NCBI RefSeq assembly: GCF_932294415.1
Contig: NC_065538.1
Coordinates: 19,009,656 to 19,073,655 of the forward strand
Origin: Quercus robur
Lineage: Eukaryota; Streptophyta; Magnoliopsida; Fagales; Fagaceae
Length of the DNA stretch: 64,000 bases
Reading direction: 5' to 3'
The position numbers were made by a program, and so were the translations under genes. Below are positions 34,488-64,000 of this stretch, piece after piece. Each line of letters starts with the position of its first letter. Within the stretch, counting starts at the first letter, position 1. The notes below the pieces were generated by a model. The model was not told the DNA's origin. It made no database searches and saw only the letters and a program-made list of their open reading frames with translations.

Positions 34488-34624
34488 AACTCGACAATAG
34501 AGAAATCGAGTTTTAATGAATAACTTGATATTTGTATAGTCGAGTTAGTCTGACCCTTCGAATTTTTCCCAATAAAAAAATGTTTGTGTAGACGGTCATA
34601 ACTCGGGAAACTGGAAATCGAGTT
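34488..34624. promoter_or_regulatory. 25-bp dyad cluster A, upstream of the PMD gene
   Basis: Three dyads of the form AACTCG-N13-CGAGTT: 34488-34512, 34522-34546 (first half AACTTG) and 34600-34624. The 13-base spacer is the same length each time. The cluster lies about 35-170 bp before the CT-rich stretch (34680-34760) that looks like the PMD gene's leader. Just left of it, 34400-34475 holds GGGCAAATACCC and GTTTGCCCTCTTTCTGAAAC words that could be part of the element's terminus. Confidence 0.8.
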
Positions 34625-34639
34625 ATTTTCAGCGGTTTG

Positions 34640-34825
34640 AATCAATAGGACCCTAACGTCTCACAACGCTATTCAGTCACTCGCTCTCCCTGTACACTCT
34701 CTTTCCCTCGCTCTCTGCCATCACTCTCTCTCCACACTCTGTCTCTCTCGCTCTGCGATCAGGCTTCCCCACTCTTCCTCGAGTCTCCATTAGTCGTCGT
34801 TGGTTCCCGCCGCCGCTGATTACAG
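34640..34825 (+). other. Probable 5' leader exon of the PMD gene
   Basis: A CT-rich, ATG-free stretch ending CGCTGATTACAG followed by GTACGG, a good splice donor. The following intron would run to an acceptor just before or at 35279 (CATGTCAG). Typical of plant genes with a leader intron. The 5' limit is approximate. Confidence 0.5.
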
Positions 34826-36485
34826 GTACGGTCCTCTCCCTCTGAAATATTTTCTGATGTTGGTTAATGTTAGGTTGCGTTTTGTGTGGGATTTTGATTA
34901 TTTTGTTGAAACTTAAGGAAGTAGTAAATTTACTAATGAAGATGAGAATTTTGTTGTCTTTTATATGCTGCAATGATGATTTTCTCATTAATGAGTTTAA
35001 ATGTGCTTGGGGTTTTGATGAGGGGTTTTGGCAAATCGAGTGGTGTTATAACTTATATTTTCATAAATAGTTAATTAATAATTATCCGAAGCTTTAAGAA
35101 GTGATTTAAATAGTTCTGAAATAATTTTTTTTATGGCAAGTTCTTATTTATTTAAGAAGTGATGTTGAAAATCTTGTGCTCAAAATATAATGTCTTACTG
35201 AATCTATGCTTTTATTTTATATTAAATGTGGTTTACTTGTTAGAAAATTGCTAACAATGTATTTGCTGCCATGTCAGATATGCAGGCACTAGATAGAGTG
35301 CGGCCTGGACCCGATGTGGATACCCAGTTGGCCCAGCAGCCGAATCATCGGTCAAGTCCACTTTGGAGGTGCGCCGCTGACGAGGTATGTAGTAGTATTA
35401 TTAATACATGTTTGTTTTATAATTACCTCGTGTTTAATCTCCTAACACAATACTCGTCCGTGTGCAGGAGGCGCCTGGCATGATAAAGGTTCGACGCCGT
35501 AAATGTGTATTGCCACAGGGTGGGTTAGATCCACGTATCATGCAACACATAGATGCAGCAGGGTTGACTGGTTTATTCAAGGTTCCTGATATGGAGGTCG
35601 ACCACGCCTTGATCACGGCGTTGGTTGAGCGGTGGCGTCCGGAGACGCACACGTTCCACTTACCCCATGGAGAAATGGGTATCACCTTGCAAGATATGGA
35701 GGTGATGCTGGGGCTTCCGGTGGATGGGTTGCTTGTCACTGGGAAGACAGACTACAAATGGAGTGAGCTGTGCGAACAGTTGTTGGGCCATAAACCTCCA
35801 CCCCCGATACCAAACTCAAACAAGTCTACCCTTGCTGGGGCGAGGATAAGATACACCTGGCTTGATGCACAGTTTGCCGATCCCTTAGTTGTGGATGCTG
35901 CTGACGAAGTCGTGCAGCAACATGCCCGCTACCACTTACTTGTACGGATGGGGGCCCTCTTGTTCATGGACAGGTCTGCGGACCGGGTCTCATTGCTGCC
36001 TCTGCAGTTGCTCAACCCAGTCAGCAATGCGAGACGGTATAGCTGGGGTAGTGCAGCATTGGCCTGGCTGTATAGGCAACTTTGTGGTGCATCGAAGAAG
36101 GATGCGATGCAGATTGGAGGAGCACTCTTGTTGGTGCAGTTATGGGCCTATTCAAGGTTCCCACAATTATGCCCTGTTGTGAGGCCGCCTCTACCGCCAG
36201 TGCACTCAGGGCCCCTTGCCATTAGGTACGTTCATTGAGTTCTCGTTATTTGTCTCTTTCATATAATTAAAAATATGCCAAACTAACAAACGAAAGAAAC
36301 TTATCAATGCTTAGTATATGGATGTGAAATATAAAAGCAAAGTTTGTTAAATGTAAGGTTCAGTAATGAGCATTTGTCGACACCTCATGTTTGGTAGGTG
36401 GAGCGGGCCAAAATGCACCGCAGAGCATGCCACACACGTCCTTACTGCGTACCGGGCGTCACTGGCTACAGTACGGGCCGAGCAG

Positions 36486-39400
36486 GTATTCGGTTAATTT
36501 AGTTTGAATTCTTATGACCACGTTTCCCTCAATTCTTATGACTACGGGCCGAGCACGTTTCCCTCAAATGCACCGCACATGCTTTTATTTTCGTTTCCCT
36601 CAATTTTTATTTTATTTTGAATTCTTGGATTGTTGTAGGAATGAGTTGATTTCATAATACCATCCAATCATTTTGTTTGATACTTGGATTTCCATCCCAT
36701 CATTTAACTCAATTGGAATGTCCATCGTGAAGTACTTCACATTAGAACTTCCATTTGTAGCACCTGCATGAATACTTGCTCGTCCTTACATAAAGTAAAA
36801 CAAAAGTAAAAAATTCTTGAATGTTAAATCAAAGGGTTTTTTCCAAATTGGGTTGGATTGAAGGGTTTTTTCCAATGCAACCCAACTCACATGACTCAGG
36901 TTAAGTTGGGTTAAATCAATGGGTTATATATAAATTTAGTCATATATATATAAAGTAGAATTTGGCTATATTCTTCATTATGTACAGAAACGTTTGTGAT
37001 TTACACCGAAAAAAAAAAAAAAAAAACACAGAATAAATTGTCCATTTTCCAAGATGTTTGAAGCATGTGCAACATGCGCAAAAGATTGAGCATAAAGTCT
37101 TGGTTTAGTGCAAGACAGTGAGTTCAAACTTGTGTTGCAACCAAAAAACAAAACCCCACCAATTGTTACAAATGTCATTAAGCTGATGCAATGAAGAGAA
37201 GACGCACATATTGGATTATGTAATTGGTTATAATTCAATGAGAAATGAATTTACCTAATAGTATACCAAAGATAATCAGATTTGTCTTTGGTTGTATTTG
37301 TGTGCTCAAGTAATTCATTTGATTTTAATGATGCATCTTCGAAACTGACGATGACATCTTTAAATTCTTTCCAGCTACTAACTGAATCAAAAGTTTGTGT
37401 TCATTTTCTGATTATGTCATTATACACCGTTTCAACCTATTTAACATGAGAAAATAGAACTTTTAGCCTGCTATGAAAATGAACTAAAAAATTTCAAAAC
37501 AATATTTCTTAAGACTTTATATAAGGCGAATGATTGTAAACGCAGAAGATATCAATTAAATTCTAAACAACAAATTTCCTACTATAAACTTGACAAATAT
37601 GGGTCTTTTCAGAACAAGGGAATCAAGGCATATTAGAATACAAATGATATTTTCAAAACGCATGGCCCCTGCGCAAGGATGACACGCATAAATCGAGAAA
37701 TGGTCCAAATTTTTTTCTTTCCCTAATCCTTGCGTGAATTCTGCGTCACTGTCTTCTTCGTTGTTTTTGCACTTTCTGCTTCTTTACATGCGTTTTGGAG
37801 TCTTGCTCAACAGGTTAGCCCAGACTTGTGCTCATAATTCTTTTAGAGAGAGTTTGAATCTTTGATAGTTGTTATACTTCAATATTAAAGCTTTAAAATA
37901 GAATTTTTTTTTAGAACTGTTGAAGCTTATTAATATTTCACACATTCTGGATTCGCTATAGTTTTGGTGGTTGACTTAGATATTACCACAATTATATTCC
38001 AGATTTTCGTTGAATTAAATTTGCTGAGTTAGAGCTTCTCTTCACTGTTGTAATATAGTTGGCTGTTAAATCTCATAAAATGATAAAATTCTTTAAATTT
38101 AGAACGTTGGGAAAGCTGCAAATGTTAAACTACGAAAATTTTATCTAATTATTGTGTAATCATGACATTAGAGCAAAAATATAACCCCAATTTGCATTTT
38201 TGGCCTAAGTACAGAAACAGAGGGAATGATGACATTATTGATCATTGGCCCGTAAAACACATGATCACTTCTCTGGCTTTCATTGAAATTTGAAATTAAG
38301 CAAACTAAAGGATGGAGTTACTCTGCCTTGAATGTCATAGAGTGACCATAGGCTAAGCCATTGCCATAGCTTGTCCTTGTCCAATGCTGGATGGTTGTCA
38401 TTGCTTGGGTCCACACTGTGAAATTTCCAAAATACAAAGCCATTAGTGCCCCCCCCACTAGGAACTCGAGAGTCCAGGGTATAGGTTAAACCCTTTGTGA
38501 GATTTGGGGTTGTTTAGGATGCCAGAGTGAGCACCGAAGATAGTCTCAATTGTTGCTTTGCCTTCAAAAACTTACTAATGTTTGGAGTTTATGCATTTCA
38601 CTACCCCTGTGACAGAACATAGCAATATTTAGTATTAAGTGACCATCTAAGGTTAATATAAACTTTTATGTTATCTAAACATCCGTTTGGGATGTTCTAG
38701 TTGATGGTGTTTTCATAGGTAGTCAATGTGAATCTAAGCTCTTTACAATTCATTGGTGCCACTGGTACTGCAGGTGGTTTTAGTGTGTGAGCTCCATTTG
38801 GGCATAGATATAAGTTTCATAGGTACGATCGAACTCTCTTGGCTAGAAGTTTCATATGTACAATTGCACCAGATTACTATCACGCTCTACTTTAGTCGGT
38901 TGTTTTTGCATATAGCCTCAATATATGCTACAAATTTGATTAAACAAATAAAATTTAAGCTTGTACGGTTTGTAATTAAGCTTGTGAAATCACTTGTAAT
39001 TAATTAATAAAATGTTATGAGCTTAAAACCATAGTTATTGCTCTGCCTAATAAGTAGACAATTTAGTATTTCTTCTTCTAACATAGGGGTATCCAGGATT
39101 ACAAACATTGTTATTGTGATGCAAAAAACATTGTTACATTGTACGTTATAAATTACCTTTGCTGAATTGAAGGTTATATTTTTACAGTCTAGTAGAATAC
39201 TGTTTGACTTCGATTTATGTATTCAAGTGGTATATTTTGAATATGCACAGCCTCGATTGTCTTCTTGGAAAACAATGGCCTAAGTTTAAAGAAACAAATA
39301 ATTGTTAATCAGTGATATATGAGAAAACATAAAGACGCTTGACACATTACCTCTTGTTGTTGACCTAAATGAAAAGTTAGTTCGTGCTCCTTGCACCAAA

Positions 39401-40209
39401 GTTGGAAAGCACAATTTAATTGCAGCATGCAACTCCTTAAGTTGTCCCCACTTTAGCTGCCTTAATAGTCCTAAAATTATTAAAAGCTATGGATTATTAA
39501 CGAGTACTTTATTCATATAATTTTAGAAGCGTGCAAAATATGCTGCTCACCATATTCTTCAAGAGGAATGTAATTTTAGACATTGACATGATTAGTTTGA
39601 GATAACTAAAAGGCTTACGTAATTTCCAACACTAAAATTTATAAGAAATATATATTTACATAGAAATATAATAACAGTATTTGATGAGGATTATACCATG
39701 TAATAATTTACATAGCTTCCATTTCTTGCAATATAAAGTGGTACTTGAAATGCAGTGTCTTCAGTAGACCTTATAATAGTCATTTTGTTCTCATTCATTG
39801 AAACATTGTTAATGACTAATGCAATTAATGTAGCACAATATTTCTATTACGATAAAAAGATTTTGCGAAATCATCAACTTGGATTCATCTTACAGCCATA
39901 AGGATGCTCTAGTACCCTCCTCTAAGTTTGGTTCAGATTGAAAACCCTAGTATTTGATGGTGTCAGTTAGCTTTGAACCCTGTCCAGCATATGAACATGG
40001 GGCTGAAAATGGTGGACATGAACAACCTAGATCTTTTAATATTTTTTGCAGGTCAATTTTGTTGTTCTTTTAGTTTCTGCCCAATAATCCCTGAAGATTT
40101 TGTGTACGACTAGAAGCTAGAAATTCCATGCTTTGCATATTACATATCACAAACATAATGTTAAATTAGTATGATGTCTCACTATCACAAACATAATCTA
40201 CTTATGCAG
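36486..40209 (+). other. PMD intron 3 (3.7 kb)
   Basis: No coding region recognised. It holds a short duplication at 36525-36600 (CACGTTTCCCTCAA twice), a poly-A run at 37008-37026, and the U6 snRNA fragment at 37660-37716. The rest is AT-rich. The donor is GAGCAG/GTATTC and the acceptor CTTATGCAG/ATTGTA. Confidence 0.7.
37660..37716 (+). ncRNA. U6 snRNA 3'-fragment (pseudogene)
   Basis: The sequence GCATGGCCCCTGCGCAAGG and the following GATGACACGCATAAATCGAG up to the terminal GGTCCAAATTTTTTT is the 3' half of plant U6 snRNA with one difference (ACGCAT for ACGCAC). The 5' half (GTCCCTTCGGGGACA, the conserved ACAGAGA box) is absent upstream, as are recognisable USE and TATA elements, so it should not be functional. 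U6 is the spliceosome's catalytic RNA. 3'-only copies can arise by LINE template switching or DNA capture. Confidence 0.92.
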
Positions 40210-40608
40210 ATTGTATGGGAGCCGTACACGCATACGCTAGGCTCCCTACCTGCGTATTGCACTGCTGGGCAGCATATTTGGAGGGCCGAGGTGCCGTTGA
40301 TATTCTTTTGGATAGTGGAGTGGCATCATCCTGAGCGAGTCCTCCGTCAGTTTGGGATGAAGCAACCAGTTCCAAGTGTCGTGGATACGTCGACTACCCT
40401 TCACAAGATATCCCTTCAGGGTAAATGGGAGAAGAACTGGGAGGTAGAACATGATCCCTTTATTCGGCAATGGGCCAACCGAGTGAATGTAGTTCGCGGG
40501 TCCGATCTCCTAGACGATGATGATACGTATCTCGTTGAGTACATGATGTGGTACAATCGCCACACAAGGCGGTACATAACACCAGAGTCTGCGTATTGGG
40601 AACTCATG

Positions 40609-41753
40609 GTAAGGCAACAATTCATATTTTATGGATGAAACCATTGTTGGATTAAATATCCTCAGCAGCTTTATCATGCATGCAAAAGTCCACAATAATT
40701 ATCGTTGTTACATCTCTATAAGTTTCTCTGTCATTTTGTTTTAAAGTCAAAAAATACTGCATGACATGTCATTATGTTTTAAAGTCAAAATACTGCATGA
40801 TTTAAGTTGTTCATAACAAACTGAATTTGTCTTGATCCAATTTGTTTGCATGAGGAATGGTTAATGGGCAATGACTAATGATGACCACACCTTTGTTCAT
40901 ATAATTACATTCAACTTTTAAAAAGGGTAGGTTGGGTTGGGTTTTATTGTATTTTATTTTATTTTTTGTTTATTTTTTTTTGTTTTTGGTTGGCTTGTAC
41001 TTTAAAATGGACGGTGCAACTCTGTGTAGTAGTGATAAATTCACATTTCATGATAGTTTAGATAGCCTTTCCTCCAGGATTGATTAATGTATTACATATT
41101 CCTTGATAGATATTACCTCTAGGATTGGGAAGTCCCTTACTAAACTGTTGGTAGAATGCAATTCCCAACAGCTTAAAGGTCATTTAAAATCTTGCAAGTA
41201 TGCAGCAAGGAGATGTGCATTTATACTAGATTCAAGTATGATATATGTTCTAAGTTTTTGGTACTTCCCTTAATTGAAACTTGAAGCTTGCGTTTGATAT
41301 TTTCAATTCATTTGATTTGGGCGTGTACGTTAGGAAATAATAACTTCAAAATATGTGTCCTGATTGCAATGTGATATTAATGGAGTTGTAAATCTGGTGA
41401 AGCCTAGATACAGAAGTGAAATTCTGATATTTTCACTTATGCTAAGATTGAACTTATGTACAACCAACTATACGTGTTTTTTAGAAGTATTATCTCAATG
41501 TTTAGATTGCATAGCGATAAACATAACAGGAAACTGAAAATTCCTGAGTGTTGGGTTGGAACTATAAATTTTTGCACAGGGGGGGCCAACCCCTATTTTT
41601 ATACACTGTCTTTTTAAAGATGCTTCATAATTATAAGTAATATAAGGATTTCATTAGCTATGTTTGCTACTTTTTCTTTTGATTTTGGAACAGATTTATC
41701 CAAGTTTTGCATCATACTTGCGTTCTTGCTTTTATGACGCCCTTGTTTTGTAG
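40609..41753 (+). other. PMD intron 4 (1.1 kb)
   Basis: Bounded by ATG/GTAAGG and TTTTGTAG/GTTCGG. AT-rich with no recognised feature; a short run of G's at 41580-41587. Confidence 0.65.
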
Positions 41754-42587
41754 GTTCGGACGATGATTAGGTCTATACAGAGGTGCGATGAAGGTTCTGA
41801 CATGCACACTGACCTTACATTTACACTAGAGCTTGTGGAGGAGCTAGGCCGACTTAAATTGGCGAATGCGCTTGCAGAAGCAGTTGACATTGATACACAG
41901 GCCCCAGTTCGTGGCGGGCAACGTGGTGGGTCTCGTGGGGGTGGACATCGTGGAGGTGGTCAAGCTGGTCGCAGCCGTACGACCGAGTCGGCTCCCATCT
42001 ACGAGGAAGGGAATGAGGAGGGTGTAGAAGAGGCATGGCTTGGCACTGATTGGGTACTGTCTGATGACGACGGCAGGACACCGTGATGCACGCCTGGCGA
42101 TGGTGCTGGGCCATCCCATAGCGTCGATCATCAAGGCACTGTTCCAGCCCACACTACATCCCATGGTGGTAGCACGGACTTTGAGGGCCCTCCTCGTATG
42201 TCGCCCCCAGTTTTCAGTGGATCTGCCCATGATGGTGGATGCATATTTGTCCCCACACCAGGCATGCCCACCCCACCTCTAAGCATGTGGACCCCACCAT
42301 GTCAGCTCCATCTCAAACCGCCCACGAAGAGGCTGTACAGATTGAGCAGATACCGGCTGAGGACATTGAGCCGGTGGAGGCTTTGCGGAGATCGCGACGC
42401 CCGCGTGCGCATGCTCCCGATTGCGGGACCGGTGATGGTATGTACTTCGTCTACACTTCCCATCTTCTTGAGCTACTTGTACTGTGCATTTGATTGATTA
42501 TGTTAATTTAATTATGCTGTTGTGTCTGATGAAACAGGTAAGATTAGACCTGTCAGGGCATATGGGCGGAAACGAAAAGATCATTAA

Positions 42588-43882
42588 ATGCCTTAGTGTA
42601 TGCTTATACTTCCTGCCTATAGGTGACTGCATAGTTACGTTTCACTTTTCTTCTAAAGTCGTATTTTTTTTTTTAGACCTAACTGCAATGGTGGACACGA
42701 AAAGGCCATTGAGCTGGATTGTCCTTGTGTGCTTATTCTTCATGTGTATAGGTGACTGGAATAAGCATGCAAAATGTTCTACTAATTGGGGAGAATCTTG
42801 GTGGCTGTGCATCTATTTCTGGATCATTGCTTGGGGAGAATACTGGCTGTCAATGTGTTTGTTGTCAAGAAATTGATATTTTGGAGAAAACCCATAAGGT
42901 GTATTGTATTTATTGATGTATTAGGAAGTTTTTCTGCACTTGGAGTTTTGATTGCAATTTGACAAATGTCTGGATTGGTATTCATTTGAAGCCAAACTTT
43001 CTTGTGTTTTTGTATGTTGTTAGCTACAGTAAAGTGGGTTGTAAGAGAGTAATTTGTTTTTTTTATTTTTGTTATTTTTGTGAGAAACAAATGTGTGGTA
43101 TTGTTGATAAGCAAGAAGAAGTAATTTGATACTTTCTGTAAAAGAGTTTGATGACGAAGTTTATGCGGATCAATGGCAGAACCAACTCCTTTGTAGCAAA
43201 TCATTTATCCGAGTCTCTACAATGCTTGGCTAGGTATGTGTCTCTCTCCTAATTTTCTGATTCGCCTTCCCTACAATTCCTAGATTGGTACATCCTCCTT
43301 CCCATTTTCTTATTTTTAATCTCCTTTAAATCCCCTCCTCTCTAGAATGATTAGATCTGTGTACATTTGATTACAAGTTCGTTAGTAGGAACTTTGGAGA
43401 GTAGAATTTATATTTTTTTCTAGCATTGTTCTAGAGCAGCTCACAATATAACTTACCCAAAGCTGAAAACGGCAAAAATCTTAGTTATGTGTGCATGTTT
43501 TGTTCCTTTCGCTTCTTGGGGTTTGTAATTGTTATTTATCATTGTATATATTACCTTTTCATTTTGGTAGCAAATTGGGAACCCAATGAGAAACATTTAA
43601 TGGATTATTGATTTTTTCATCAATTAGCCTTCTTATTTTATGATTTTCAGTATATATATATATATGTTGTGTGTGTCATTGGCCAATGAATCAAATCTTG
43701 TCCATCATTTGCTTTAATGAAATGATGGAGGCATTAATGAAAAATTTGCATACTGTTTGAATGTTACTTTTATTGTTTGTGTATTGCCGTTTTTTGGGTT
43801 TGAATTATTATCTATGCTTACAAAGGTATATGCATTTTTCTCAATAATTTTCGGTTAGTATCTAATGTCTCCTTCACCACAG
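42588..43882. other. Region between the PMD gene and the captured fragments
   Basis: No gene recognised. It contains the presumed PMD 3' untranslated region and poly-T/TA runs (42665-42675, 43645-43665). The open frame at 42484-42876 has no family resemblance. Confidence 0.5.
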
Positions 43883-44209
43883 CACATTAAGACGTTGGAG
43901 AAGTGGCCAACCTTCAGAATCCTGGGAGGCTCATAAGGCAGCAATCCAAGCACTCATAAAGCTGCCTTCAGGCGAGCTTGTTACAGGTATAATATGATTC
44001 AGTAGATGACTGTTCTGCTAGATATTGTTTTAGATTTTGTTGGTAGTTGGAACTGGTTACATCAGATTGGAATGCATAGATCCAACTATGTCTTTCACTA
44101 TGAACTTATGGGGTTCATTTTTATGCTACCACGATTTTAGGTTCAAGTGATACAACTTTAAAACTTTGGAGAGGAAGCAAATGTACACATACTTTTGTTG
44201 GGCATACAG
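43883..44209 (+). pseudogene. Captured two-exon fragment of a PLAA/DOA1-like WD40 gene
   Basis: Two exon pieces, 43883-43986 and 44141-44209, are flanked by intact AG acceptors and GT donors. They read TLRRWRSGQPSESWEAHKAA, IQALIKLPSGELVTG and SSDTTLKLWRGSKCTHTFVG, the WD40 repeats of the plant phospholipase-A2-activating-protein family (Ufd3/DOA1 type, ubiquitin and Cdc48 linked). Only about 57 residues of a protein of roughly 750 are present, with no start or end. Intron sequence is kept, so genomic DNA rather than cDNA was copied, as in Pack-MULE transduplication. No function expected. Confidence 0.85.
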
Positions 44210-44238
44210 GTATTTTTTCCATTTATTTGCCTTCATTG

Positions 44239-44270
<32 letters not shown>

Positions 44271-44777
44271 CCTTATCTGCAATGTGTTGAAATCATGTGG
44301 GAATGAAAATAATTGTAGATTTTGCAAACTAACGATGCTGTAAAATTTTCTTCTTACATGTCTGTTTGGTGATCATCAAACATATTTTCTTTGAGCTTCC
44401 TATAAGTTAGAAGTGGAAGAAGCATTTAATAAGACTTCTGATCTATAAGTTGGCATTAATTGACCAAACTGTTGACATGGGTAATCCTCATATGTTTAGT
44501 GCTTTACATGGTTTGATTGCTAAAAAATTTAGACATGATGATACCTCTTTGTCTCCTGTGGAGTATTTAGTGGGAAAGGAATGCTTGCACTTTTGACGGA
44601 AGTGAGATTGATTCTTGATTTGAAGTTGCTCTTCCGGACTTTATCTAAGCGGACTAATGCTTTGGCATTCATTACCAATCTGACTGGTTTTGTATTTATC
44701 TTCACATGATTGAGAGTTGTGTTATTTGCTTCAAACTTGGCTTTATAATATGGCTTTATATATCATTGATAAAACAG

Positions 44778-44932
44778 ATCAAATATAGGCTGATGCACTT
44801 GTTCTGAGGGGGATCAGTTGCACATTTGAGGAAGGGCACAAAATACGTATTGTTGGCAGAATTGGCAGTGGCAAGACCACTCTCATAGAGATGAACCTGT
44901 TTTGTCCAGTGGAGCTAGCTAGAGGGAAGATA
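44778..44932 (+). pseudogene. Captured exon fragment of an ABCC-type ABC transporter
   Basis: After a splice-acceptor-like AAAACAG the sequence reads IKYR, then in the next frame [35 protein letters not shown] and ELARGKI before a TAG. This is the start of the second nucleotide-binding domain of plant ABCC (MRP) transporters, with the Walker A motif GRxGSGKTTL. One frameshift near 44795 and no flanking transporter exons are present, so it is a fragment. It lies 570 bp after the WD40 fragment in the same orientation. Confidence 0.82.
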
Positions 44933-46205: not shown

Positions 46206-46304
46206 CCTGCTCTACAAAAACGCAATGGTGGGAACTCTTTGCACTAGAATGTGGTTGCACCTTCTAACGTGTGAAGTGGGCTTTTGTAGAGGAAATGGGG
46301 CTAA

Positions 46305-46470
46305 AACTCGATTCTATAGAAATCGAGTTATAGCATGCGGAGTTACATGTAACTCGACTTCTAATTAATCGAGTTTCTGAAATGCCGTCATTTCAATATG
46401 TCTTGTCAACAGTAACTCGATTTATGTGGTATCGAGTTTTATATAAAATCGATTTCCTTAATATCGAGTC
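46305..46470. promoter_or_regulatory. 25-bp dyad cluster B, between divergent genes
   Basis: Four dyads: 46305-46329, 46351-46375, 46414-46438, 46446-46470 (the last with AAATCG and CGAGTC halves). All have a 13-base spacer. A perfect palindrome AGTTACATGTAACT lies at 46341-46354, overlapping the second dyad. The cluster begins 100 bp from the ATG of the minus-strand RNase-H1-domain ORF and precedes the probable leader of the transposase gene, so it could serve both. Confidence 0.82.
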
Positions 46471-46509
46471 ATGTTGTCCCCGTCCCCACATTTCAGAATC
46501 CATGCACGT

Positions 46510-46890: not shown

Positions 46891-46954
<64 letters not shown>

Positions 46955-51275: not shown

Positions 51276-51368
51276 ATTGGTATCAGAGCGGGTACACAGC
51301 TGTTTGGTGTCATTACCATTTGTGTGATCCTAGACCCCTGTGTTGTGGTTGCTGTTCTTGTTTATACC

Positions 51369-54300: not shown

Positions 54301-54866
54301 CGAAGGAATCTCATCTGACTGCTGCTAAGCGAATCATTCGATATGTGAGTGGTACTGCAAACTATGGTCTGTGGTATTCAAAAGACTCAAATGCGTGTCT
54401 TGCTGGGTATTCGGATGCTGACTGGGCTGGAAGTGTAGACGATCGGAAAAGCACTTCAGGTGGCTGTTTTTATCTTGGTAACAATCTTGTTTCGTGGATG
54501 AGCAAGAAGCAGAATTCAGTGTCTCTATCTACTGCAGAAGCAGAGTACATAGCTGCTGGAAGTTGCTGCACTCAGCTTCTTTGGATGAAGAAATTACTTC
54601 ATGACTATGGAATTCCTCAAGAAACGATGTGTGTCTTCTGTGACAACACCAGTGCCATCAATCTTTCCAAAAATCCTGTTCAGCATTCAAAATCCAAACA
54701 CATAGAGATACGTTACCATTTCATTCGGGATTTGGTAGAGGAAAGAGTTGTGTGTCTTGAGTTCATACACACTGACAATCAAAAGGCGGATATCTTCACC
54801 AAGCCTCTCGATGGTCCACGGTTTGAATCCCTCCGTAAGACCATTGGTGTCGGTACAATTCCTTGA
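51369..54866 (+). CDS. Copia pol polyprotein lacking most of Gag
   Basis: The open frame begins only ~45 bp after the primer-binding site (GTG at 51324, first ATG 51369). The N-terminal ~110 residues are a Lys-rich coiled-coil-like piece ([19 protein letters not shown]), with no Gag core or CCHC knuckle, so an internal deletion removed most of gag. Then: protease [17 protein letters not shown]-pre-integrase [13 protein letters not shown]; integrase with [19 protein letters not shown] and [10 protein letters not shown]; reverse transcriptase with [13 protein letters not shown]; RNase H with [17 protein letters not shown] and [13 protein letters not shown]. No stops. It could act only if Gag came from another copy. 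Confidence 0.93.
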
Positions 54867-56816
54867 CTCTCTTGTGTGTTGTGTGCTTCACTGTTTATAT
54901 ATCTGTCTGTGTTGGAGCACACATTTTTTTTGCAACTTGTTTCTTGCTTGCTTGTTCTTTTGTGTTTGCTGCTGGTTTTGTTTGTGTTTGATTCATTCTT
55001 TTTGTTTCTTGAGTCAAAAATCCAAAAATCACATAAAGAATTTGAAAATCAAAACACTTGATTGACTTTGTTGAGTTTTTGTCTTAAAACTCGTTTTGCC
55101 TTGTACCTTTGTGCTAATGGCTTTGTGCATTGTCGAGCATTACTTGTTTTCTTGCACTCATATCACTTTGGGAAAAATCTTGAAATCTATGTGATTGTTG
55201 TAAATAGATCTTCAAACTTGTCATGAATGATTAGTGAATGGTTATGTTGATCTTGAAACATGCATAGACTTGTGTCTATATCTCTTCCCATTTTTTATTT
55301 TTTTTGCTAAAAAGAGCTCACTAAATGTAAATCTCCAAATGAAAAGAGATATTGAGCTGCAAAAGCCTGTCGCACATTCTAGTATTTGACTAGGAAAAAG
55401 GGTAAGCGACTTTATATTAAAAGTGAAATTTCTTTCAAAAAGGCCAAAGGCCTATTCTTCAAAGTAAAATGTTATATATCCCTCTCACAATGAGAGATGA
55501 TTGCCTCAAAAGATCAAATGTTATGGCTGAAAGTGGAGTCAAATGAAAGGCTCCAAGTTATGTTATCAAGTTGTGTGGGAAGTCATATATTCATATTTCT
55601 TTAATTGAGATTGGTCACATGATCTAGTGCTAATTGTGTATGCCTTGGTTGAATTGATCATTGAAGCTTCACATTAGTCAAAGGACTATTTCATTGTTGT
55701 TATCCACACACAACACACAAGTTTGTGTTCGATAAATGCCATATTCATTTGTGTGATTGTACTTGATAAAATGTGTTTTCACATGCTCAATCTCTGTTAA
55801 TTCAAGCACAAAAAGATTTTTGAGTGTTTTAGGTGTTTTTGGAAAGTGTTTTGCTGAAAAATCTGAAAAATTTCAAAAATACAGTTTTGCCCTGTTTTGG
55901 CGGCTCAGTCGCGGGTGTGTCAAGTCGCGAGCCTCAGTCGCATCTTCGCTGGTCAGTTTTGGCGACTTGTTCGCGAGTGGAAGGTCCAGTCGCGAGATTC
56001 ACTCAGAGATTTTCGCGGCTCAGCTCGCGACTCACTCGCGGGTAGACCTTCCAGTCGCGAAAAACACTTAGACAAATTTTTTAAAAAAAAAAATTTCATC
56101 TTGAGTGCTTTGGCGGCTTGAGCTGGCGACTGTGTGGCGACTTGAACCAGTCGCGAAAATCGCGTGTTTTGGACATACAGGGGCAGTTTTTAAAATTTTC
56201 TGTTTTCCCTCGATCTTTTTGTGACTGTTCATTGTCTTTTTCTTCTGCACTTTCCCTTTCTCACCGTGCCTTCATTGTCGATCTCCATTGTTTGCTTCTT
56301 TTCCGCTAAAAATCGTCGACTCACAGGTATGGTTCCTTGTCTTGCACTCTAATTGTCCTGTTGTTATGGTTTTTCCTCTGGATTATTCACTTCTGAGTGT
56401 GGGTTTTGTGATGGGCTTTGTTGTCATCGTTGTCCTTTCTTAGCTTATGGTAACCTGTGCTTCTGGTTTTGAGCTTATTTATTTTGTTGGCTGTGTTCTT
56501 CATCATATGCTTAGCTAGGGTTAGCTAATTTTTGTCTGATCTGTTGTTGCTATCATATTTCACCTTGATCTTGTGTGGTATCTTGTTGATGTGGTGTTGA
56601 TTTTGGTCCCTTTACAGCTGTTTTTGTGGGCTTACTTGATCTCTCTACTGTGTAGTTCTAAGTTGGGCCTTTGGTGTCCCTCATTGTTACTTTTTGACCA
56701 TACTCATCCAGCTGTTAGGGTTTCTTCTTTGTTCCTACATTTTCACTAACCCACTGCTGATATAGTCTGTTGGATTGTGTTTTTGTCATTTCCCTTGTTT
56801 ATAATACAGACTGGTC
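54867..56816 (+). other. Copia 3' region between pol and the extra ORF
   Basis: 1.95 kb with no credible coding region, T-rich, with a cluster of TCGCGA-containing words at 55895-56165 like those in the LTR. It ends with a leader-like stretch up to the ATG of the next ORF. The open frames at 55757-56121 are read through the CpG-rich cluster and are not convincing. Confidence 0.6.
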
Positions 56817-57782
56817 ATGTCTCCATTCAAAAAGGCTGCTGTGAAAGGAGGTTCTTCCAAAGGGAAGGAACCCGTAATTGATGTTGATGAAGACACACCT
56901 CTCCCGAAAGTGACTCGCTCTTCATCACAGCGATTCGATCCCAATAAGTTCAGATCCTATTCAGCATATCAGTCATATGAGAACTTCTTTCTTCATGCAA
57001 CACCACTACTAGAGAGAGCGGTGGATCTGCCTTCACTTCATAACACTGACATCCCGATATGCTTTGCTCACAAGGATTGGAATTATCTTCTCTCGGATCC
57101 GGATATCGTGTATGAAGAGTTGGTTAAAGAATTTTATGCTAATGCAATTGTGGAGGGAGATGAACTTAAGTGCTGGGTTCGGCAAAAGAGCTTTTCTGTC
57201 TCTCCTACATACCTGGCAGAAATTCTTCACATCAACAGACCCATTTTTCGTCATTCACCGGTCTATGATGATCTATGTCCTGATGAGGAGCTTCTAAAAC
57301 AAAGTCTTGGTCAAGACTTGGAATTCTCGCCAAATGGAAAATCCATCAGTGTTTCCTCCCTTTCTCCGAAACTGCGAGTGCTTACAATTGTGATGTTTCA
57401 CAATTTGTACCCTTTGTCAAGTACTGGGTATATGAATCTCGGACGAGCTTTGTTTCTTCATGATCTGGTTTCTGATGAAGAAATTGACATTTGTGCTCAC
57501 ATCTTTCATGTTCTGCGCAAAACAGTTCTTCGCAGTGAGTCTCGGATCTGCATTCCTTTCTGCAGTCTCATTTCACGGATCTTGAAGCTCAAGGGGATCT
57601 ATCCATCGACTGATGAGTCTCCTATCCCTAAACCGAGTCCGATCAACATGCGTACATACAATGCAAGTGTTGGACATAGTCGGAAGAGAGCCAAACCAGA
57701 AACATCTGCATCTCACAGTGACTCTCAGTTCAGCAATCTCTCCTTCGATGAGAAACTTGATCGCATTGTTTCCGCACACTAG
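56817..57782 (+). CDS. Extra Copia ORF, 'putative plant transposon protein'-like
   Basis: A 321-residue frame from ATG 56817. The basic, Ser-rich N-terminus (MSPFKKAAVKGGSSKGKEP) is followed by a predicted globular part: SAYQSYENFFLHATPLLERA, VDLPSLHNTDIPICFAHKDW, LVKEFYANAIVEGDELKCWV, LAEILHINRPIF, LGRALFLHDLVSDEEIDICA. This resembles the 'putative plant transposon protein' family seen 3' of pol in some plant LTR elements; I recall it without being able to check. The last residues (SAH) come from LTR sequence after the deletion joint at 57768, so the natural C-terminus is missing. No transmembrane segment was seen, which argues against an envelope-like protein. Confidence 0.7.
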   Translation: MSPFKKAAVKGGSSKGKEPVIDVDEDTPLPKVTRSSSQRFDPNKFRSYSAYQSYENFFLHATPLLERAVDLPSLHNTDIPICFAHKDWNYLLSDPDIVYEELVKEFYANAIVEGDELKCWVRQKSFSVSPTYLAEILHINRPIFRHSPVYDDLCPDEELLKQSLGQDLEFSPNGKSISVSSLSPKLRVLTIVMFHNLYPLSSTGYMNLGRALFLHDLVSDEEIDICAHIFHVLRKTVLRSESRICIPFCSLISRILKLKGIYPSTDESPIPKPSPINMRTYNASVGHSRKRAKPETSASHSDSQFSNLSFDEKLDRIVSAH

Positions 57783-57870
57783 TTGTTTAACATATTGCGT
57801 GTGTTGTTTAATTTGGTTTTTGGGGGTCTAAACGTTCAAAAGTGTTTTTGTACACGTTTTTGAACTTTCA
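57768..57870 (+). repeat. 3' LTR remnant, last 103 bp only
   Basis: Begins GTTTCCGCACACTAGTTG, the same as 51173 onward in the 5' LTR, and ends ACTTTCA beside the TSD. The first ~1008 bp of this LTR, the polypurine tract and the end of the upstream ORF are missing. Confidence 0.95.
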
Positions 57871-58122
57871 GATAGGTTAGAATGGCCGGAGCCAGCAGAA
57901 AGGAGAACCGTGATGCCAAACCAGCGGTTGATCCGTGAAAAAGGTCGGCCCAAGTCCACGAGAATCCGCAATGAGATGGATGACGAGGATAGGGAGTTGC
58001 CAACCTCATTGTGGATTGAGAATGGACCAAAGTTGAAGTGTGGGTTGTGTCGCCAAGAGGGTCATAACCGTCGTACATGTCCAACTCGAAATGTGGCTTC
58101 AACAAGCCATGGTGCTATGTAG

Positions 58123-58872
58123 CAGGTAACAATTACAAATCATAGTAACAAGGGGGTATCATAAGTTATTCTTCTTTACATGTTTAGATATTACATTATA
58201 TGAGTTATAATTAAGATGTGGGCAGTAATTTGTAGTATTCTTTCAATCTTATTGTTTGTGGTGTTCATATTCTAGTATTCATGAGGTCTCTATTTCCCTA
58301 AGTGTATATGTTTTGCTGCAGATTTGTAATTGTTGCCAAGGTGTAACTGTAGATGCTCCTCATTTAAGCAGGCAAGCTTGAATGCTCTTCTATATTTGTC
58401 AATTCAATTTATTAATTACCATGGGTTGTATACTAATTTCTGTGTTGGCTACTCCTCAGAAAGGAGGCAACTTCTGAAAAGAACAAATAGAAGGTGTCAC
58501 TCAAATGCTATGACTCCATGTTTGCCTAAAACCATTGTTGGCGGATGCTGTCCAAGTTTCAACTTACAATTGTGAAGAATGTTTAAAATGCAGAAATGAA
58601 ACTTTTTATTTTTGTACATCAACTGATTTAAATGCATAGAGGCTCTTTACTTACAAATAAGCTTGTATATATGGATGATTTTTTTATTCGCGTAATGCAA
58701 ATGGGGGAATGTTACTGATGGATGTGGTTGGTTATGATTTGTATGGATGACTTGTTGTTCACAGCATGGTTGTCAGCAGGTCCACTTTTACTATGAATAA
58801 GCACGATACTGAATGGGTGTGAACAGTGCAAGTCGCAAGCAAAACTACAAGTAGAAAGGTTATACTAAATGA
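58123..58872. other. Transposase 3' flank
   Basis: AT-rich sequence, presumably 3' untranslated region and terminator of the transposase gene. No other gene recognised. No inverted-repeat terminus was found here. Confidence 0.5.
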
Positions 58873-59761
58873 AACTCGATTTTCCAGCTAACGAGTTACG
58901 TTGCAGTCCATTTTCAATCCCCTTCGACTGTATCCATTCTCAATTGTCAAGTATCTGGGTTACTCGATTTCTCTATATCCGAGTTACGTTCAACATAACT
59001 CGATTTATAGGGTACCGAGTTACGTTGGAGAGCACTCTACACAGCTAGATTCCTCTTGGACTGTATCTGGACCAGTCCAAATAGCTGGACTGGGTGTTTG
59101 AGCCCAGTCAAGGTAACTCGATTTCCTTATAGCCGAGTTATGTTGAGAAGAACTCGCTATCTGTAGCTTCGAGATACGTTGAAGACCATTGTGCACACTT
59201 AGATTCCTCTTGGACTGCCTCTGGACCAGTCCAAATATCTGGGCTGGGTCGGGAAGCCAGTCAACTTAACTCGATTAAGTTATTACCGAGTTATGTTGAA
59301 AAAAACTCAATATCTTTAGCATCGAGATACATTGAAGACCATTGTCTACACTTAGATTCCTCTTGGACTGCCTCTGGACCAGTCCAATTATCTGGGCTGG
59401 GTCAGGAAGCCCAGTCAACTTAACTCGATTTAGTTGTTACCGAGTTATGTTGAAAGGAACTCGATATCTATAGCATCGAGATACGTTGATCACCATTGTC
59501 TACACTTAGATTCCTCTTGGACTGCCTCGGGACCAGTCCAATTATCTTAACTCGATTTCTTTATAAGCGAGTTATTCGCATGTAACTCGATTTCTTGAGT
59601 ATCGAGTAATTCTACTTTAACCTGATGTTCAGGATATCGAGTTACTTCAAATGGACTTCCAAACCACCACACACAACATGGATTCCTCTAAGATACACTG
59701 CGCACAGCATGGACTCCTTTTAGTCCCAGTACACATAACTCGATTTCTTAATAATTGGGTT
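58873..59761. promoter_or_regulatory. 25-bp dyad cluster C, upstream of the B3 gene
   Basis: Thirteen AACTCG-N13-CGAGTT-type dyads start at 58873, 58961, 58997, 59115, 59151, 59268, 59304, 59422, 59458, 59549, 59584, 59619 and 59737; several have one or two changed half-site bases, the spacer never changes. Many come in pairs whose starts are 35-36 bp apart. Between pairs lies the second dyad TTGGACTG-N9-CAGTCCAA at 59056, 59210, 59363 and 59517. Together they form a tandem repeat of about 154 bp (phased at 59047, 59201, 59354, 59508). The cluster ends 92 bp before the B3 start codon. Confidence 0.85.
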
Positions 59762-59852
59762 ATGTGTATGACCAACCCACTATTTAGTGCTCAAATGTAC
59801 GAAGCAGCAACTGTTCAACTTCTTCTCAGCGAAAGTTGGGAGAACCAGAACA

Positions 59853-61942
59853 ATGGCTTCTCAATGGCGGAGAGACAACGACGATGGTCCTGCTGATCGG
59901 TCCCCACACTTTTTTAAGATTATTCTGCCGAATGCTGTTCAGGAAGGAAAGCTTGTAAGTATGCTCAAATTTATAAACTAGATTCCTCTGAAAATCATAT
60001 GCTAATATACACTTTGAACACTTCATCTTCTTTATTTGTGATTCTTGAAAAAATGTACATTTGTTACATGTAGTCAGAAAAACTTTCATTTTGCAATACG
60101 TAGGTTACACTTTAAGAAGAACACAGTCACATAACAGAGTACTTTTGCATCGTACACTTTTATATGAACAAAAAATGAAACAGGGATAAGCGCATGGTAG
60201 AGATTGAGGAAAAATAAATACAGAGCAAGAGCAGATGGCATTTTTTTGAAAATGTGATAGGGCTTATAGGGTCACCACAGATGTATAACTCAATTTAAAC
60301 TGTGAAACTGTGTCCTGGGATCAAACTAGGATACAGAAATCGTTCACTCTTTTTATCATTTGTTTTTTAGAGTTCACAAACTTATGAAGTGGCTAAGTGG
60401 CAAAAATTACTACGTCTAAATCCAAATCCTGCCCATAAACAAAAGTGGGTCATCTTCAATGTTTCCCCAACACCCCAAAACCAAATCACAGACACATTAT
60501 CAAAATACAACATTTCCCCAAAATTTTTTACATTTCAACAACAACAGAGAAATGTAAAATGTTGACAGCTGTTGATGGTTATTTTGGTTATAAGATTAGG
60601 TTGTATAATTTGGTTTCAAAATTCATAAGATTTGTTACTGTTATAGCTATTAAATATAACGTCAATGTTGCAGGATTACATTTTATTTTGTTTGATTTTC
60701 TTTTCTTTTTTGTGTGGGGGTGGGGGGCTGTAACTAAGAAGTATTCTGCCATCATTCAAACTTTTATTTTCTAGCATTGTGTATAAGGATTGATTGCATG
60801 TGTTTATTTCCCTAGCCTGCATTTATGTTATGGAGATTCTTTTTACAGCGGATTCCAGATAAGTTCGTGCAGAAATTTGGAGTGGACCTGTCAGATATGG
60901 CCTTTCTCACTATTCCAAATGGTAGAAAATGGGAAGTCAAGTTGACACAACATGCTGGGGGGGTTTGGTTTCAAAATGGTTGGTCCGAATTTGCAAGCTC
61001 TCATGGTGTAGCCGTGGGGCACTTGCTGGTTTTCAAATATGAAGGAAATTCACAGTTTCATGTACTCATATTTGATGCCACTGCAACAGAAATAGACTAT
61101 ACTTTAGACGACGAACTCCAAGTTCATAGGATCGAAGATGATGAGAGTGATGACAGCTCTGTTGAAATCATCAAACACTTTTATAGGGGAGAGGGTTCAG
61201 GTTTGAATGTTACACTTTTTTAAGCAACTGGTTGATTTGTTTAGCTTCTGCTCTATTAATTTTATGTGCATGACTTCGTATTTTCAACTTCTTTCAGGAT
61301 CAGCCCATCCTAAGAAAGACGGTGGTGTAGCTAAAAATCTTGTTATAGCCAATGCTTTTAAATCAGAAAATCCCCTTTTCACTGTTATCATGCGTCCATC
61401 CTACGTTAATGGCAAGGATCGTGCGGTAAGCTTTTAGCTTCACTAAAATGGAATATTTTTGTAATTTAGAAATGCAACTCCCATTAACTATCATTTTTCA
61501 TAGATCAATTAGAAAGATTGTCACACTAGATACTTGTGGCTGGACATTTTGTTGGTAATGATTTTTTCTTATTTGTGTTTTTAGGTGAAAAGATGTAGAT
61601 CAATTAGATACTTGTTGCTGGAATATATTTGTTAAATATCTATTATTGTTCCTTGTACAGAGTTTACCCCAACACATTATCAACTACTTACCAAGAGACG
61701 GGTTTACCAAGGACTACACCAAAGCAAGTATACTCCCTGTCAAGCTCCAGATTGTGGACCGATTATGGCCTGTGAAGCTATACATTTATGAACGAAGTGG
61801 GGGTTCATCATGTGTCGTATCAGCTGGTTGGTCTGCGTTTGTGAGGGAAAATAGTTTGCAAGTAGGAGATGTTTGCGTATTTGAGCTGATTATGAGGGAC
61901 GGTGTTGTGTTAAACGTCCACATTTTCAAGTGCCAAGACTAA
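59853..61942 (+). CDS. B3-domain (REM-type) DNA-binding protein
   Basis: Exons 59853-59954, 60849-61200, 61298-61425, 61661-61942; GT-AG introns with phases 0, 1, 0; about 287 residues, no stops. The start MASQWRRDND is the ATG nearest to the first B3 domain. B3 domain 1 (residues ~18-110): HFFKIILPNAVQEGKL, RIPDKFVQKFG, WEVKLTQHAGGVWFQNGWSE, HLLVFKYEGNSQFHVLIFD. An acidic linker (DDESDDSS) follows. B3 domain 2 (residues ~175-287): NPLFTVIMRPSYV, LPQHIINYL, PVKLYIYERSGGSS, AGWSAFVRENSLQVGDVCVF, NVHIFKC. Two B3 domains with this linker is the REM subfamily; these are nuclear DNA-binding proteins. It sits directly behind dyad cluster C, so it may be controlled through, or bind, those sites. Confidence 0.93.
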
Positions 61943-62674
61943 GTAGTTAGGGTAGATGCAAAGTGATGATAATATTATGTGATGTTTAGAGTGTGTTTAC
62001 TTTGCAACTTTACTATTCATCCCTATTTTGTTCATCCCAGTTTGCAACTTTATTGATTGGGTACTTTTGTGATGTTTAGAGTTTCACTCTTGGGAAATTT
62101 TTAATTACTATGATGAACTTTCATATGTATTTTAAAATGAATGTGATGCTATATTTTTTTCTGCGCTTTTGTTTGGATTTTGGCCTTTTTTGCATGTCAT
62201 TCAATTATATTACATTGAATGGCGACTCTTGGATTTTATTTTAGGGGGGTCAACATTGTTATTGCTATAGGATTTTGTTCTTTTCAGATGACATTGTTGT
62301 ATGTTTTGTATATATTGTAACACTTTAATACAATAACACCATGTGCAATAATTTTTAGTCATTATTTTTTATGTTTGCAAATTTAGATGTTTAAAAAATA
62401 AGTGAGAAGTTAATCCATCAATTGTGTCAATCAATATAATGTGGCAAATTGAAAAGCTTGATAGCTAAATTTTCAAAATTTCACTTGGTAGCAATTTTTC
62501 AAATGTTATAGATGAAGTTGGAACTTCTTGTAAACTGCAAGGACTAAAATATGTATTGTTTTATTCAATGAACTTGATGAATCGTTGCTCAAAGAAAAAT
62601 ATCATTGTTTCCTGAAAAATCTTTGTATCTTACAAATGAATAACACAAAATACTGGTGAAATATGTACCAATAC
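61943..62674. other. B3 gene 3' flank
   Basis: AT-rich, no gene recognised; presumed 3' untranslated region in its first few hundred bases. Confidence 0.55.
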
Positions 62675-62765
62675 GCTATTTGCAGCCAAATTTTCCACGG
62701 CTCCTTTGCCAGCTAAAAAACCACGAACAAGAGGACTGTATGGAACTATTCCAATGCCAAGCTCC
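62675..62765 (-). pseudogene. Single-exon fragment of an aldo-keto reductase
   Basis: On the minus strand, after an acceptor-like TGTACATGCAG, the sequence reads [20 protein letters not shown], then [10 protein letters not shown], and is followed by a GT. This matches the ELGIGIVAYSPLGRGFF region of plant NADPH-dependent aldo-keto reductases (perakine-reductase/IN2-2 type). Only ~30 residues are present. Neighbouring exons were not recognised, so it is probably another captured or orphan exon. Confidence 0.7.
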
Positions 62766-63382
62766 CTGCATGTACAAAAACATTAAAATTCGAGAGACCA
62801 TACTCATGCTTCTAGATAAGATAATTAAATTATATTGAAATCAAATCTACACAAAATGGATGATATTTTTTTTTTTTGTTGCAGTAGTCCTTCAAAAGAA
62901 CAGTAGTGTTGCAAACGCAAGGATGAATATAAGGGGAAAATAAAAAAGGAGAGAGATTTAGGATACACGGAAGCATTCAAAACACCAAAATTTATAGAAA
63001 AACATCATCTTTGAACTAAACAAACCTGCAAACAACATCTGTCAGACTCCTATCATAACTGCTGCCATTAACTGCTTATGAAAGTGGGTCATCCACACGG
63101 TAGAAATGCAAGTAATTCTATCATTGTCATAAGGAATCATGAGTCTGGATTATTTCTAAATCCATTTTCTCAAGAAATTTTCATGAAAAAGAAATTTTCA
63201 TGAAAACTGTGAAACTTACATTTTATTGAGAATCATACCACTAAAAAAGAAGTAAATAAAAAATATTAAATAAAAAGGCTCCGCATGATTTTTGGAACAA
63301 CTTAGAAGACTACTTGTTATTGTCAATTAATGTTGAGAAATGATTACACCTAACAGGAAGATTAAGGGAGACCAGTGAAAAT
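62766..63382. other. AT-rich spacer before dyad cluster D
   Basis: No gene recognised. More aldo-keto reductase exons were looked for on the minus strand and not found with confidence. Confidence 0.5.
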
Positions 63383-63976
63383 AACTCAAGTTCTACAAAA
63401 TTGAGTAACTCTGCAAATAACTCGCTTTATGATGTATCCATTTATATGCAAGCCATTACACACAGAAATTGCATTCTTGAGATATTCTACTGCAAATAAC
63501 TCGATTTTACCGGAGTTCGGTTTTGTGCGAGGTAGCCATATACAGTTGGATTCCTCTTGGACTGCATCTGGACCAGTCCAAATATATGGGCTGGGTGGGT
63601 GCATGTGTACAACGTAACTCGATTTTCCAAATCTCGAGGAATTTGAATTCTTGTGAGTGTCCACTGCACAGAACTCGATTCAAGTAGAATCGAGTATTGT
63701 GGCAGGCCTACCTTTAAACTTCGATTCGTCTTGGACTGCATCTGGACCAGTCCAAATATCTGGGGGCCCAGAAAAATAACTCGAGTTCTGTATAATCGAG
63801 TTATTTGAAATTAACTCGTTGTCTGCAACATCGAGTTATGAGAAAGCCGTTCCACCATTAACTGGATTCTTGTTATTTGTGCTACACATAACTCGATTTA
63901 CGGACAGTCGGTTTATGTGCAAGCCCTTGTGCTGAAAATTTGATTGCATGTAACTCGATTTCCAGAAAATCAAGTT
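63383..63976. promoter_or_regulatory. 25-bp dyad cluster D, at the window edge
   Basis: Nine dyads, some degenerate, start at 63383, 63419, 63498, 63616, 63672, 63778, 63813, 63890 and 63952, all with the 13-base spacer. The second dyad TTGGACTG-N9-CAGTCCAA occurs at 63557 and 63731 (offset 174) in the same orientation as in cluster C. The cluster probably continues beyond the window and, by analogy with A-C, may precede another gene on the right. Confidence 0.78.
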
Positions 63977-64000
63977 ATATGGACATTACAATCTATTACC

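What the first reader, a model, noticed from the sequence alone, without database searches (positions are those of the whole stretch)
34488..63976. A fixed-spacing 25-bp dyad, AACTCG-N13-CGAGTT, in four clusters beside four genes
I count about 29 sites in 29.5 kb: 3 at 34.5 kb, 4 at 46.3-46.5 kb, 13 at 58.9-59.8 kb, 9 at 63.4-64.0 kb. The spacer is 13 bases every time while its sequence varies (often ATTTC...AT, so the halves can extend to AACTCGAT/ATCGAGTT). Half-sites degenerate, the spacing does not. That pattern points to selection for a protein dimer binding two half-sites about 19 bp apart. Clusters A-C each sit within a few hundred bases of the start of a gene: PMD, the divergent RNase-H1-domain/transposase pair, and B3. 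I know no named plant element with this site. The closest idea is the clustered short motifs bound by VANC anti-silencing proteins in Arabidopsis VANDAL MULEs.
Basis: seen in the sequence. Interest (0 to 1): 0.87.

Follow-up and report, generated by a model that had tools for sequence, protein, structure and literature searches.

The report
Paired operator sites of giant MULE
A precisely spaced two-half DNA motif marks the ends and the control regions of a giant family of plant jumping genes, and it probably is the docking site by which a protein of the element controls and moves its own copies.

Summary
The motif is real: 29 sites in the window against 0.94 in shuffles; genome-wide 4650 exact AACTCG-N13-CGAGTT against 117 for spacers 10, 11 and 12 together.

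It is not four clusters beside four unrelated genes. All clusters lie in ONE Mutator-like element (MULE), 34398 to 73519 (39.1 kb, beyond the window), with a 9-bp target duplication and terminal inverted repeats. Sites sit in both termini and in intergenic clusters. In nine delimited elements, eight of them MITE-sized, the first dyad lies 89-90 bp inside 12 of 18 ends. One copy of a subfamily with 67% transposase identity and mostly unalignable intergenic DNA has 21 dyads in the same two intergenic places, but no B3 gene in the stretches fetched.

Best reading: operator for a dimeric, element-encoded protein, perhaps the transposase, serving transposition at the ends and control or anti-silencing inside. 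Unexpected: neighbouring dyads pair at 31-36 bp, and the spacer core changes faster than the surrounding DNA. It works like VANC targets of VANDALs, but no VANC-type gene was found. Binding is untested.

The parts
34389..34397 (.). left target-site duplication ATAGAGAAA (right copy at window coordinate 73520-73528, outside the window)
   Evidence: sequence at both ends printed
34398..64000 (+). window part of one giant Mutator-like element, total 34398-73519 (39,122 bp; about 31.4 kb without the nested insert)
   Evidence: 145-column terminal inverted repeat at 82.8% identity and 9-bp target duplication; MULE transposase inside
34488..34624 (.). cluster A: 3 dyads next to the left end, first one 90 bp inside the element
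35438..40635 (+). plant mobile domain gene in at least two exons (35438-36235, 40165-40635)
   Evidence: PF10536, E 5e-51 and 1.4e-19
45768..46205 (-). small protein with the RNase H1 N-terminal (Cauli_VI) domain, present in the 67% subfamily copy at 66% identity
   Evidence: PF01693 E 2.7e-15; tblastn
46305..46470 (.). cluster B: 4 dyads (plus one overlapping weak match) in the divergent intergenic region
   Evidence: 7 dyads at the same place in L055
47763..50222 (+). MULE transposase frame; interrupted in this copy by a stop at 48153 and by a nested insert
   Evidence: PF10551, PF03108, PF04434; stop; 24 of 65 listed copies show an 881-882 aa frame, two of these 24 with one internal stop; insert boundary
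50165..57869 (.). nested insert (copia-type pol and a second Transposase_32 ORF), absent from copy L026; ends uncertain by about 6 bp
   Evidence: L026 aligns across 50164/57870 with 6 bp overlap; domains
57870..58119 (+). 3' end of the transposase gene with CCHC knuckle, separated by the insert
   Evidence: (PF13696 E 0.0006, below its curated cut-off)
58873..59761 (.). cluster C: 13 dyads, in part on 154-bp tandem units
   Evidence: dyads at this place in all 29 fetched relatives L026-L054 and, as 14 sites, in L056
59853..61939 (+). gene with two B3 DNA-binding domains (domain exons 60816-61220 and 61589-61939); start codon read by eye
   Evidence: PF02362 E 3.4e-17 and 6e-13
63419..63976 (.). 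cluster D: 7 dyads between the B3 gene and the Transposase_32 gene whose open frame starts at window coordinate 64738

Best explanation
The dyad is a cis-acting operator of a MULE family. A homodimeric protein encoded by the element binds the two inward-facing half-sites AACTCG(ATTT) about two helical turns apart. Near the ends a dyad lies mostly 89-90 bp inside the element, also in MITE-sized relatives, and helps to assemble the transposition complex or mark the end. In the intergenic clusters arrays of often paired dyads recruit the same or a sister protein to the element's own promoters, for autoregulation or to keep them unsilenced. Shown by computation: element boundaries, spacing, positions, presence at the same places in a distant subfamily copy. 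Inferred: that a protein binds, that it is a dimer, and that the binder is the transposase (about 0.5) rather than an accessory protein such as the Transposase_32, Cauli_VI or PMD product.
For: Spacer 13: 4650 exact, against 117 for spacers 10-12 together. One element with termini and 9-bp target duplication encloses all clusters. 13 of 16 dyad loci taken from chromosome 1 share homology with its termini; in 7 of the 13 the match reaches the outermost 10 positions, in the others it is an inner stretch that includes the dyad. In 9 delimited elements the first dyad lies 89-90 bp inside 12 of 18 ends and 86-94 bp inside 16 of 18; 7 of the 9 have a target duplication of 9-10 bp, one of them with a mismatch. 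One copy of the 67% subfamily has 7 and 14 dyads in the two corresponding intergenic regions at spacer 13, against 2 at spacers 9-12 and 14-17 together; the only intergenic blastn match to the window's element there is 58 columns at a dyad. In the element's 34 sites, spacer positions pair across the axis at most 0.03 more often than column composition predicts, which speaks for two half-site contacts rather than a hairpin. In tandem units half-sites change less than the DNA between dyads: 7 changes in 48 columns against 84 in 216, p 0.004. Neighbouring dyads lie 31-36 bp apart in 38 of 108 neighbour pairs, none at 26-30 (not independent, as tandem and inverted copies are included).
Against: No binding, expression or methylation data exist here. 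In the three dyads outside the tandem units, half-sites are no more conserved than the DNA between (8/36 against 27/134, p 0.68), and one half-site column holds four bases. The left terminus of the 67% copy was not found in 8.5 kb fetched (L057, L058); the only N13 site there lies in what looks like a nested MITE. 3 of 16 chromosome-1 dyad loci show no terminal homology. Four positions just outside the dyad (-5 to -2) pair across the axis more than expected, 0.32-0.62 against 0.23-0.46, so some longer inverted symmetry exists. Internal sites outnumber terminal ones, which is odd for a pure transposase site. The termini are related by descent, so the fixed distance is not fully independent evidence.
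Confidence: 0.62

Rival explanations
1. VANC-like anti-silencing targets: the clusters recruit an element-encoded protein that strips DNA methylation from the element's non-coding regions; the terminal copies serve the same end rather than transposition.
For: Dense arrays in non-coding regions, tandem-repeat units and rapid divergence match what Hosaka 2017 and Sasaki 2023 report for VANC targets (passages seen). Cluster C lies partly in 154-bp units, and the DNA between its dyads changes faster than fourfold sites of the transposase (0.20-0.39 against 0.075 per site).
Against: No DUF1985 or DUF287 match among 20 unspliced ORFs scanned (10 at E<=0.001, 10 at E<=1). The motif is a two-half dyad; the word stem 'palindrom' has 0 occurrences in Hosaka 2017.
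Confidence: 0.3
2. The B3 protein carried by the element reads the dyad, as a dimer or through its two B3 domains, in the way ARF B3 domains measure the spacing of inverted sites (recalled).
For: Two B3 domains encoded inside the element; cluster C ends about 90 bp before the gene.
Against: One copy of the 67% subfamily has dyads in both clusters but no B3 match by tblastn in the stretches tested (L055, L056); its Transposase_32 gene follows cluster C directly. The median transposase to Transposase_32 distance is 3.0 kb in the 61-67% group (15 of 19 copies) and 7.5 kb in the >=95% group (33 of 34), as expected if B3 was gained. A genome-wide B3 search did not complete, and the 67% copy was not read whole.
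Confidence: 0.12
3. Host transcription-factor sites hijacked by the element: a plant dimeric factor binds the dyads and drives the element's genes.
For: Internal clusters lie in intergenic regions next to element genes.
Against: A mostly fixed 89-90 bp position at the ends of very short MITE-type copies is not expected of a promoter element; 13 of 16 sampled loci share homology with the MULE termini.
Confidence: 0.12
4. Passive descent: the dyads are only repeated remnants of an ancestral terminal repeat, copied with the element, without function.
For: The termini compared are related by descent; cluster C is partly tandem duplication; half-sites of dyads 1-3 are not more conserved than the DNA between.
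Against: Same places and same spacer in a copy with mostly unalignable intergenic DNA; half-site against spacer-core contrast in tandem units.
Confidence: 0.06

Closest known systems
VANDAL MULEs and their VANC-target motifs (Hosaka 2017 PMC5735166; Sasaki 2023 PMC10398659; passages seen)
   Same: Short motifs in dense arrays in the non-coding regions of a MULE, in part as tandem repeats that diverge quickly; a MULE transposase gene plus accessory genes.
   Different: A 25-bp two-half dyad with fixed spacing rather than a 9-bp motif arrayed in one orientation; sites also near the ends at a mostly fixed distance; no DUF1985/DUF287 match found.
MURA binding site in maize Mu/MuDR terminal repeats (about 32 bp, as told in passages of PMC3310237)
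   Same: A conserved protein-site candidate inside the terminal region of a MULE, present in short copies too.
   Different: Here the motif is a dyad, recurs in internal intergenic clusters, and mostly starts 89-90 bp from the end.
En/Spm TnpA subterminal repeat sites (recalled; the search found no paper)
   Same: Many copies of a short site near the ends and promoter, read by an element protein that both helps transposition and counters methylation.
   Different: Other superfamily (CACTA); no relation of the proteins was tested.

Membership tests
Mutator-like elements (MULE, MuDR type) | transposase with MULE domain, DBD_Tnp_Mut and SWIM finger | tested here: met
   PF10551, PF03108, PF04434 in window:48168-50225
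Mutator-like elements (MULE, MuDR type) | target-site duplication of about 9 bp | tested here: met
   ATAGAGAAA on both sides; 7 of 9 delimited elements have one
Mutator-like elements (MULE, MuDR type) | terminal inverted repeats | tested here: met
   145 columns at 82.8% between the two ends
VANDAL / VANC anti-silencing system | clustered short motifs in non-coding regions | tested here: met
VANDAL / VANC anti-silencing system | VANC gene with DUF1985 and DUF287 | tested here: not met
   no match among 20 ORFs scanned against Pfam; spliced genes were not modelled; domain names
VANDAL / VANC anti-silencing system | degenerate terminal inverted repeats | tested here: inconclusive
   145-column repeat here; Sasaki 2023 calls VANDAL TIRs degenerate but Dupeyron 2019 lists TIRs of 46-174 bp for some of its VANDAL group
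VANDAL / VANC anti-silencing system | transposase falls in the VANDAL clade | not tested
   no VANDAL reference sequences were held; no tree made
VANDAL / VANC anti-silencing system | sequence-specific loss of DNA methylation | not testable with these tools
   no methylation data
B3-dimer operator (ARF-type spacing rule, recalled) | B3 protein present wherever the site is used | tested here: inconclusive
   one copy of the 67% subfamily has 21 dyads but no B3 match in the stretches tested; the copy was not read whole and the genome-wide B3 search did not complete

The most novel reading that the evidence does not exclude
A giant MULE carries a dispersed operator system of its own, read by a protein unrelated to VANC: paired dyads 31-36 bp apart mark ends and promoters, and the spacer core is actively diversified (by repeated nicking and repair at the bound site, or by selection to escape matching small RNAs) while half-sites and spacing are held. 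It would be an independent solution to the problem that VANC solves.
Probability: 0.3. Interest if true: 0.8.

Novelty: new variant of a known kind. Interest (0 to 1): 0.62.

Why it matters
If the internal clusters work as anti-silencing targets, anti-silencing by MULEs would extend beyond VANC; Sasaki 2023 suggests that anti-silencing by transposons may be more common than thought (passage seen). The fast-changing spacer core would make an arms race with the host's RNA-directed methylation measurable at single-site level.

Tried and rejected
Four separate gene-linked clusters: rejected, one element spans them. A hairpin or RNA structure: judged unlikely, as spacer positions of the element's 34 sites pair across the axis at most 0.03 above expectation; but in a larger mixed set of 198 distinct sites position 8 exceeded it (0.77 against 0.63), and positions just outside the dyad do so in both sets. 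Passive satellite: judged unlikely. B3 as obligatory reader: lowered, not excluded. Literature: only searched for the motif's letters (AACTCG with 'transpos'; 15 of 61 papers listed, none a plant MULE motif by title); searched for MULE, binding-site and gene words, and their listings named no paper on this motif. Dupeyron 2019 mentions PMD 7 times and 'b3 domain' 0 times (passages).

Not answered: genome-wide counts for spacers 14-16, and searches with the B3 and Cauli_VI proteins. The organism was not identified.

Row selection: one search used 16 dyad loci (L009-L024) chosen from the 50 sites listed, all within the first 10 Mb of chromosome 1. One search took 9 elements whose ends I could place (two of them, L013 and L015, without a target duplication); the other loci were not delimited. 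Searches used 27 copies (L026-L052), leaving out the more divergent L053 and L054 and the window's own copy. In one search the set printed as 'C1' also held loci L025-L054.
Full report
CHECK. One search finds 13 exact AACTCG-N13-CGAGTT and none for any other spacer from 0 to 30; with up to two mismatches 29 sites, 0-8 for each other spacer. Shuffles give 0.94 on average and never more than 5. In the whole genome of 785.7 Mb the exact pattern occurs 4650 times against 64 for its reversed control; spacers 10, 11 and 12 together occur 117 times, control 179. Spacers 14-16 did not complete by the tool.

WHAT IT LIES IN. A terminal sequence at 34398 recurs inverted at window coordinate 73519, in flank L005: 145 aligned columns at 82.8%. 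Both sides carry the 9-bp duplication ATAGAGAAA. This delimits one element of 39,122 bp. It holds a plant mobile domain gene, an RNase H1 N-terminal (Cauli_VI) gene on the minus strand, a MULE transposase (MULE, DBD_Tnp_Mut and SWIM domains), a gene with two B3 domains, and a Transposase_32 gene. A 7.7-kb insert sits in the transposase gene of this copy, as the alignment of copy L026 shows. PMD genes in MULEs are known (Dupeyron 2019, passages). The dyads are: A, three near the left end; B, in the divergent region between Cauli_VI and transposase; C, 13 between transposase and B3; D, 7 between B3 and Transposase_32; and five more near the right end.

GENOME-WIDE. From the 50 listed sites (all in the first 10 Mb of chromosome 1) I fetched 16 loci; 13 of 16 share homology with the element's termini, 7 of these up to the outermost 10 positions, the others in an inner stretch that includes the dyad. 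Nine elements could be delimited, the 39-kb element and eight short ones (330-674 bp); 7 of 9 have a target duplication of 9-10 bp, one of them with a mismatch. The first dyad lies 89-90 bp inside 12 of 18 ends and 86-94 bp inside 16 of 18; the exceptions are 59 and 113. Neighbouring dyads are often paired: 38 of 108 neighbour distances are 31-36 bp, none 26-30, five 37-46; tandem and inverted copies are included, so these are not independent.

CONSERVATION. A transposase search lists 65 copies (lower bound), 34 at 95% identity or more, 12 at 80-94% and 19 at 61-67%. All 29 fetched relatives (L026-L054) carry dyads downstream of the transposase, at the place of cluster C. One copy of the 67% group was read further: Cauli_VI gene, then 7 dyads, then transposase, then 14 dyads, then the Transposase_32 gene. 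These 21 sites (up to two mismatches) stand against 2 at spacers 9-12 and 14-17 together; with the first base allowed to be A or T it is 23 at spacer 13 against 5 at spacers 11, 12, 14 and 15. 16 of the 21 combine one AACTCG with one TACTCG half. Blastn finds coding similarity to the window's element plus one 58-column match at a dyad. No B3 match was found in these stretches. The PMD region is partly kept: blastn matches the second PMD exon, tblastn with the first exon gave nothing. The transposase to Transposase_32 distance (58 of 65 copies have both within 30 kb on the same strand) has a median of 7.5 kb in the close group, 8.2 kb in the 80-94% group and 3.0 kb in the distant group, which fits a B3 gene gained in the closer groups; a direct B3 search did not complete. 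Against simple uniformity: 8.5 kb around the expected left end of the 67% copy show no dyad-bearing terminus; the one N13 site there sits in what looks like a nested MITE.

FAST SPACER CORE. In 27 close copies (L026-L052) I counted parsimony changes per column (numbers from the tree of all columns, the transposase-region tree gives nearly the same). Tandem units (dyads 4-7): half-sites 7/48, inner positions 7-9 17/24, core positions 10-16 43/28, between dyads 84/216. Dyads 1-3: half-sites 8/36, inner 2/18, core 13/21, between 27/134. Fourfold sites of the transposase: 22/294. Core against between: p 3e-11 and 0.002. Columns with three or more bases: core 13 of 49, between 7 of 350; the core favours transversions, 17 of 24 variable columns against 42 of 86 between dyads. 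Only 25 of 4725 cells inside dyad columns are gaps, the number that one missing dyad would give (not traced). Caveats: dyads were found by their half-sites and spacing, tandem units can exchange by conversion, and in dyads 1-3 the half-sites are not more conserved than the DNA between (p 0.68).

MECHANISM. Fixed spacing with a free core, hardly any excess pairing across the axis inside the element's 34 sites (some excess just outside them), a mostly fixed place near the ends of tiny copies, and clusters at the same intergenic places in a distant subfamily copy together argue for a dimeric protein carried by the element. The transposase is my first candidate for the terminal sites; an accessory protein is as likely for the clusters. 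In effect the system resembles VANC targets, but no DUF1985/DUF287 match was found among 20 unspliced ORFs, so it is not filed as a VANDAL; the transposase clade was not tested, and the TIR criterion is inconclusive because Dupeyron 2019 lists VANDAL members with TIRs of 46-174 bp. Binding, expression and methylation remain untested.

CHANGED ON CHECKING. 

Noticed in passing
58873-59482 and L026-L052: The core of the dyad spacer changes faster than the DNA between dyads and than fourfold sites, with transversions favoured; the cause is open.
   Followed up: partly
27525-33168: A copia-type element with 521-bp direct repeats at 99.2% identity lies just left of the MULE, so probably a young insertion.
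   Followed up: no
50165-57869: Nested insert in the transposase gene with copia-type pol and a Transposase_32 ORF only 23% identical to the MULE's own; a 110-bp direct repeat (51173-51281 and 57768-57877) does not match both insert ends, so its structure is unresolved.
   Followed up: partly
L055 and L056: In the 67% subfamily copy 16 of 21 dyads combine one AACTCG with one TACTCG half, as if the two halves were read differently.
   Followed up: no
L005:3886-4350:+, L005:8148-8627:-: Two small ORFs toward the element's right end, by eye with heptad-like stretches; no Pfam family above its cut-off.
   Followed up: no
33186-33590: A small cysteine-rich reading frame just outside the MULE, read by eye only.
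   Followed up: no
6956-7568 and 23512-23988: Two two-copy tandem duplications (306 bp at 90%, 237 bp at 95% matches).
   Followed up: no
dyad flanks, positions -5 to -2: Bases just outside the dyad pair across the axis more often than column composition predicts; meaning unknown.
   Followed up: no
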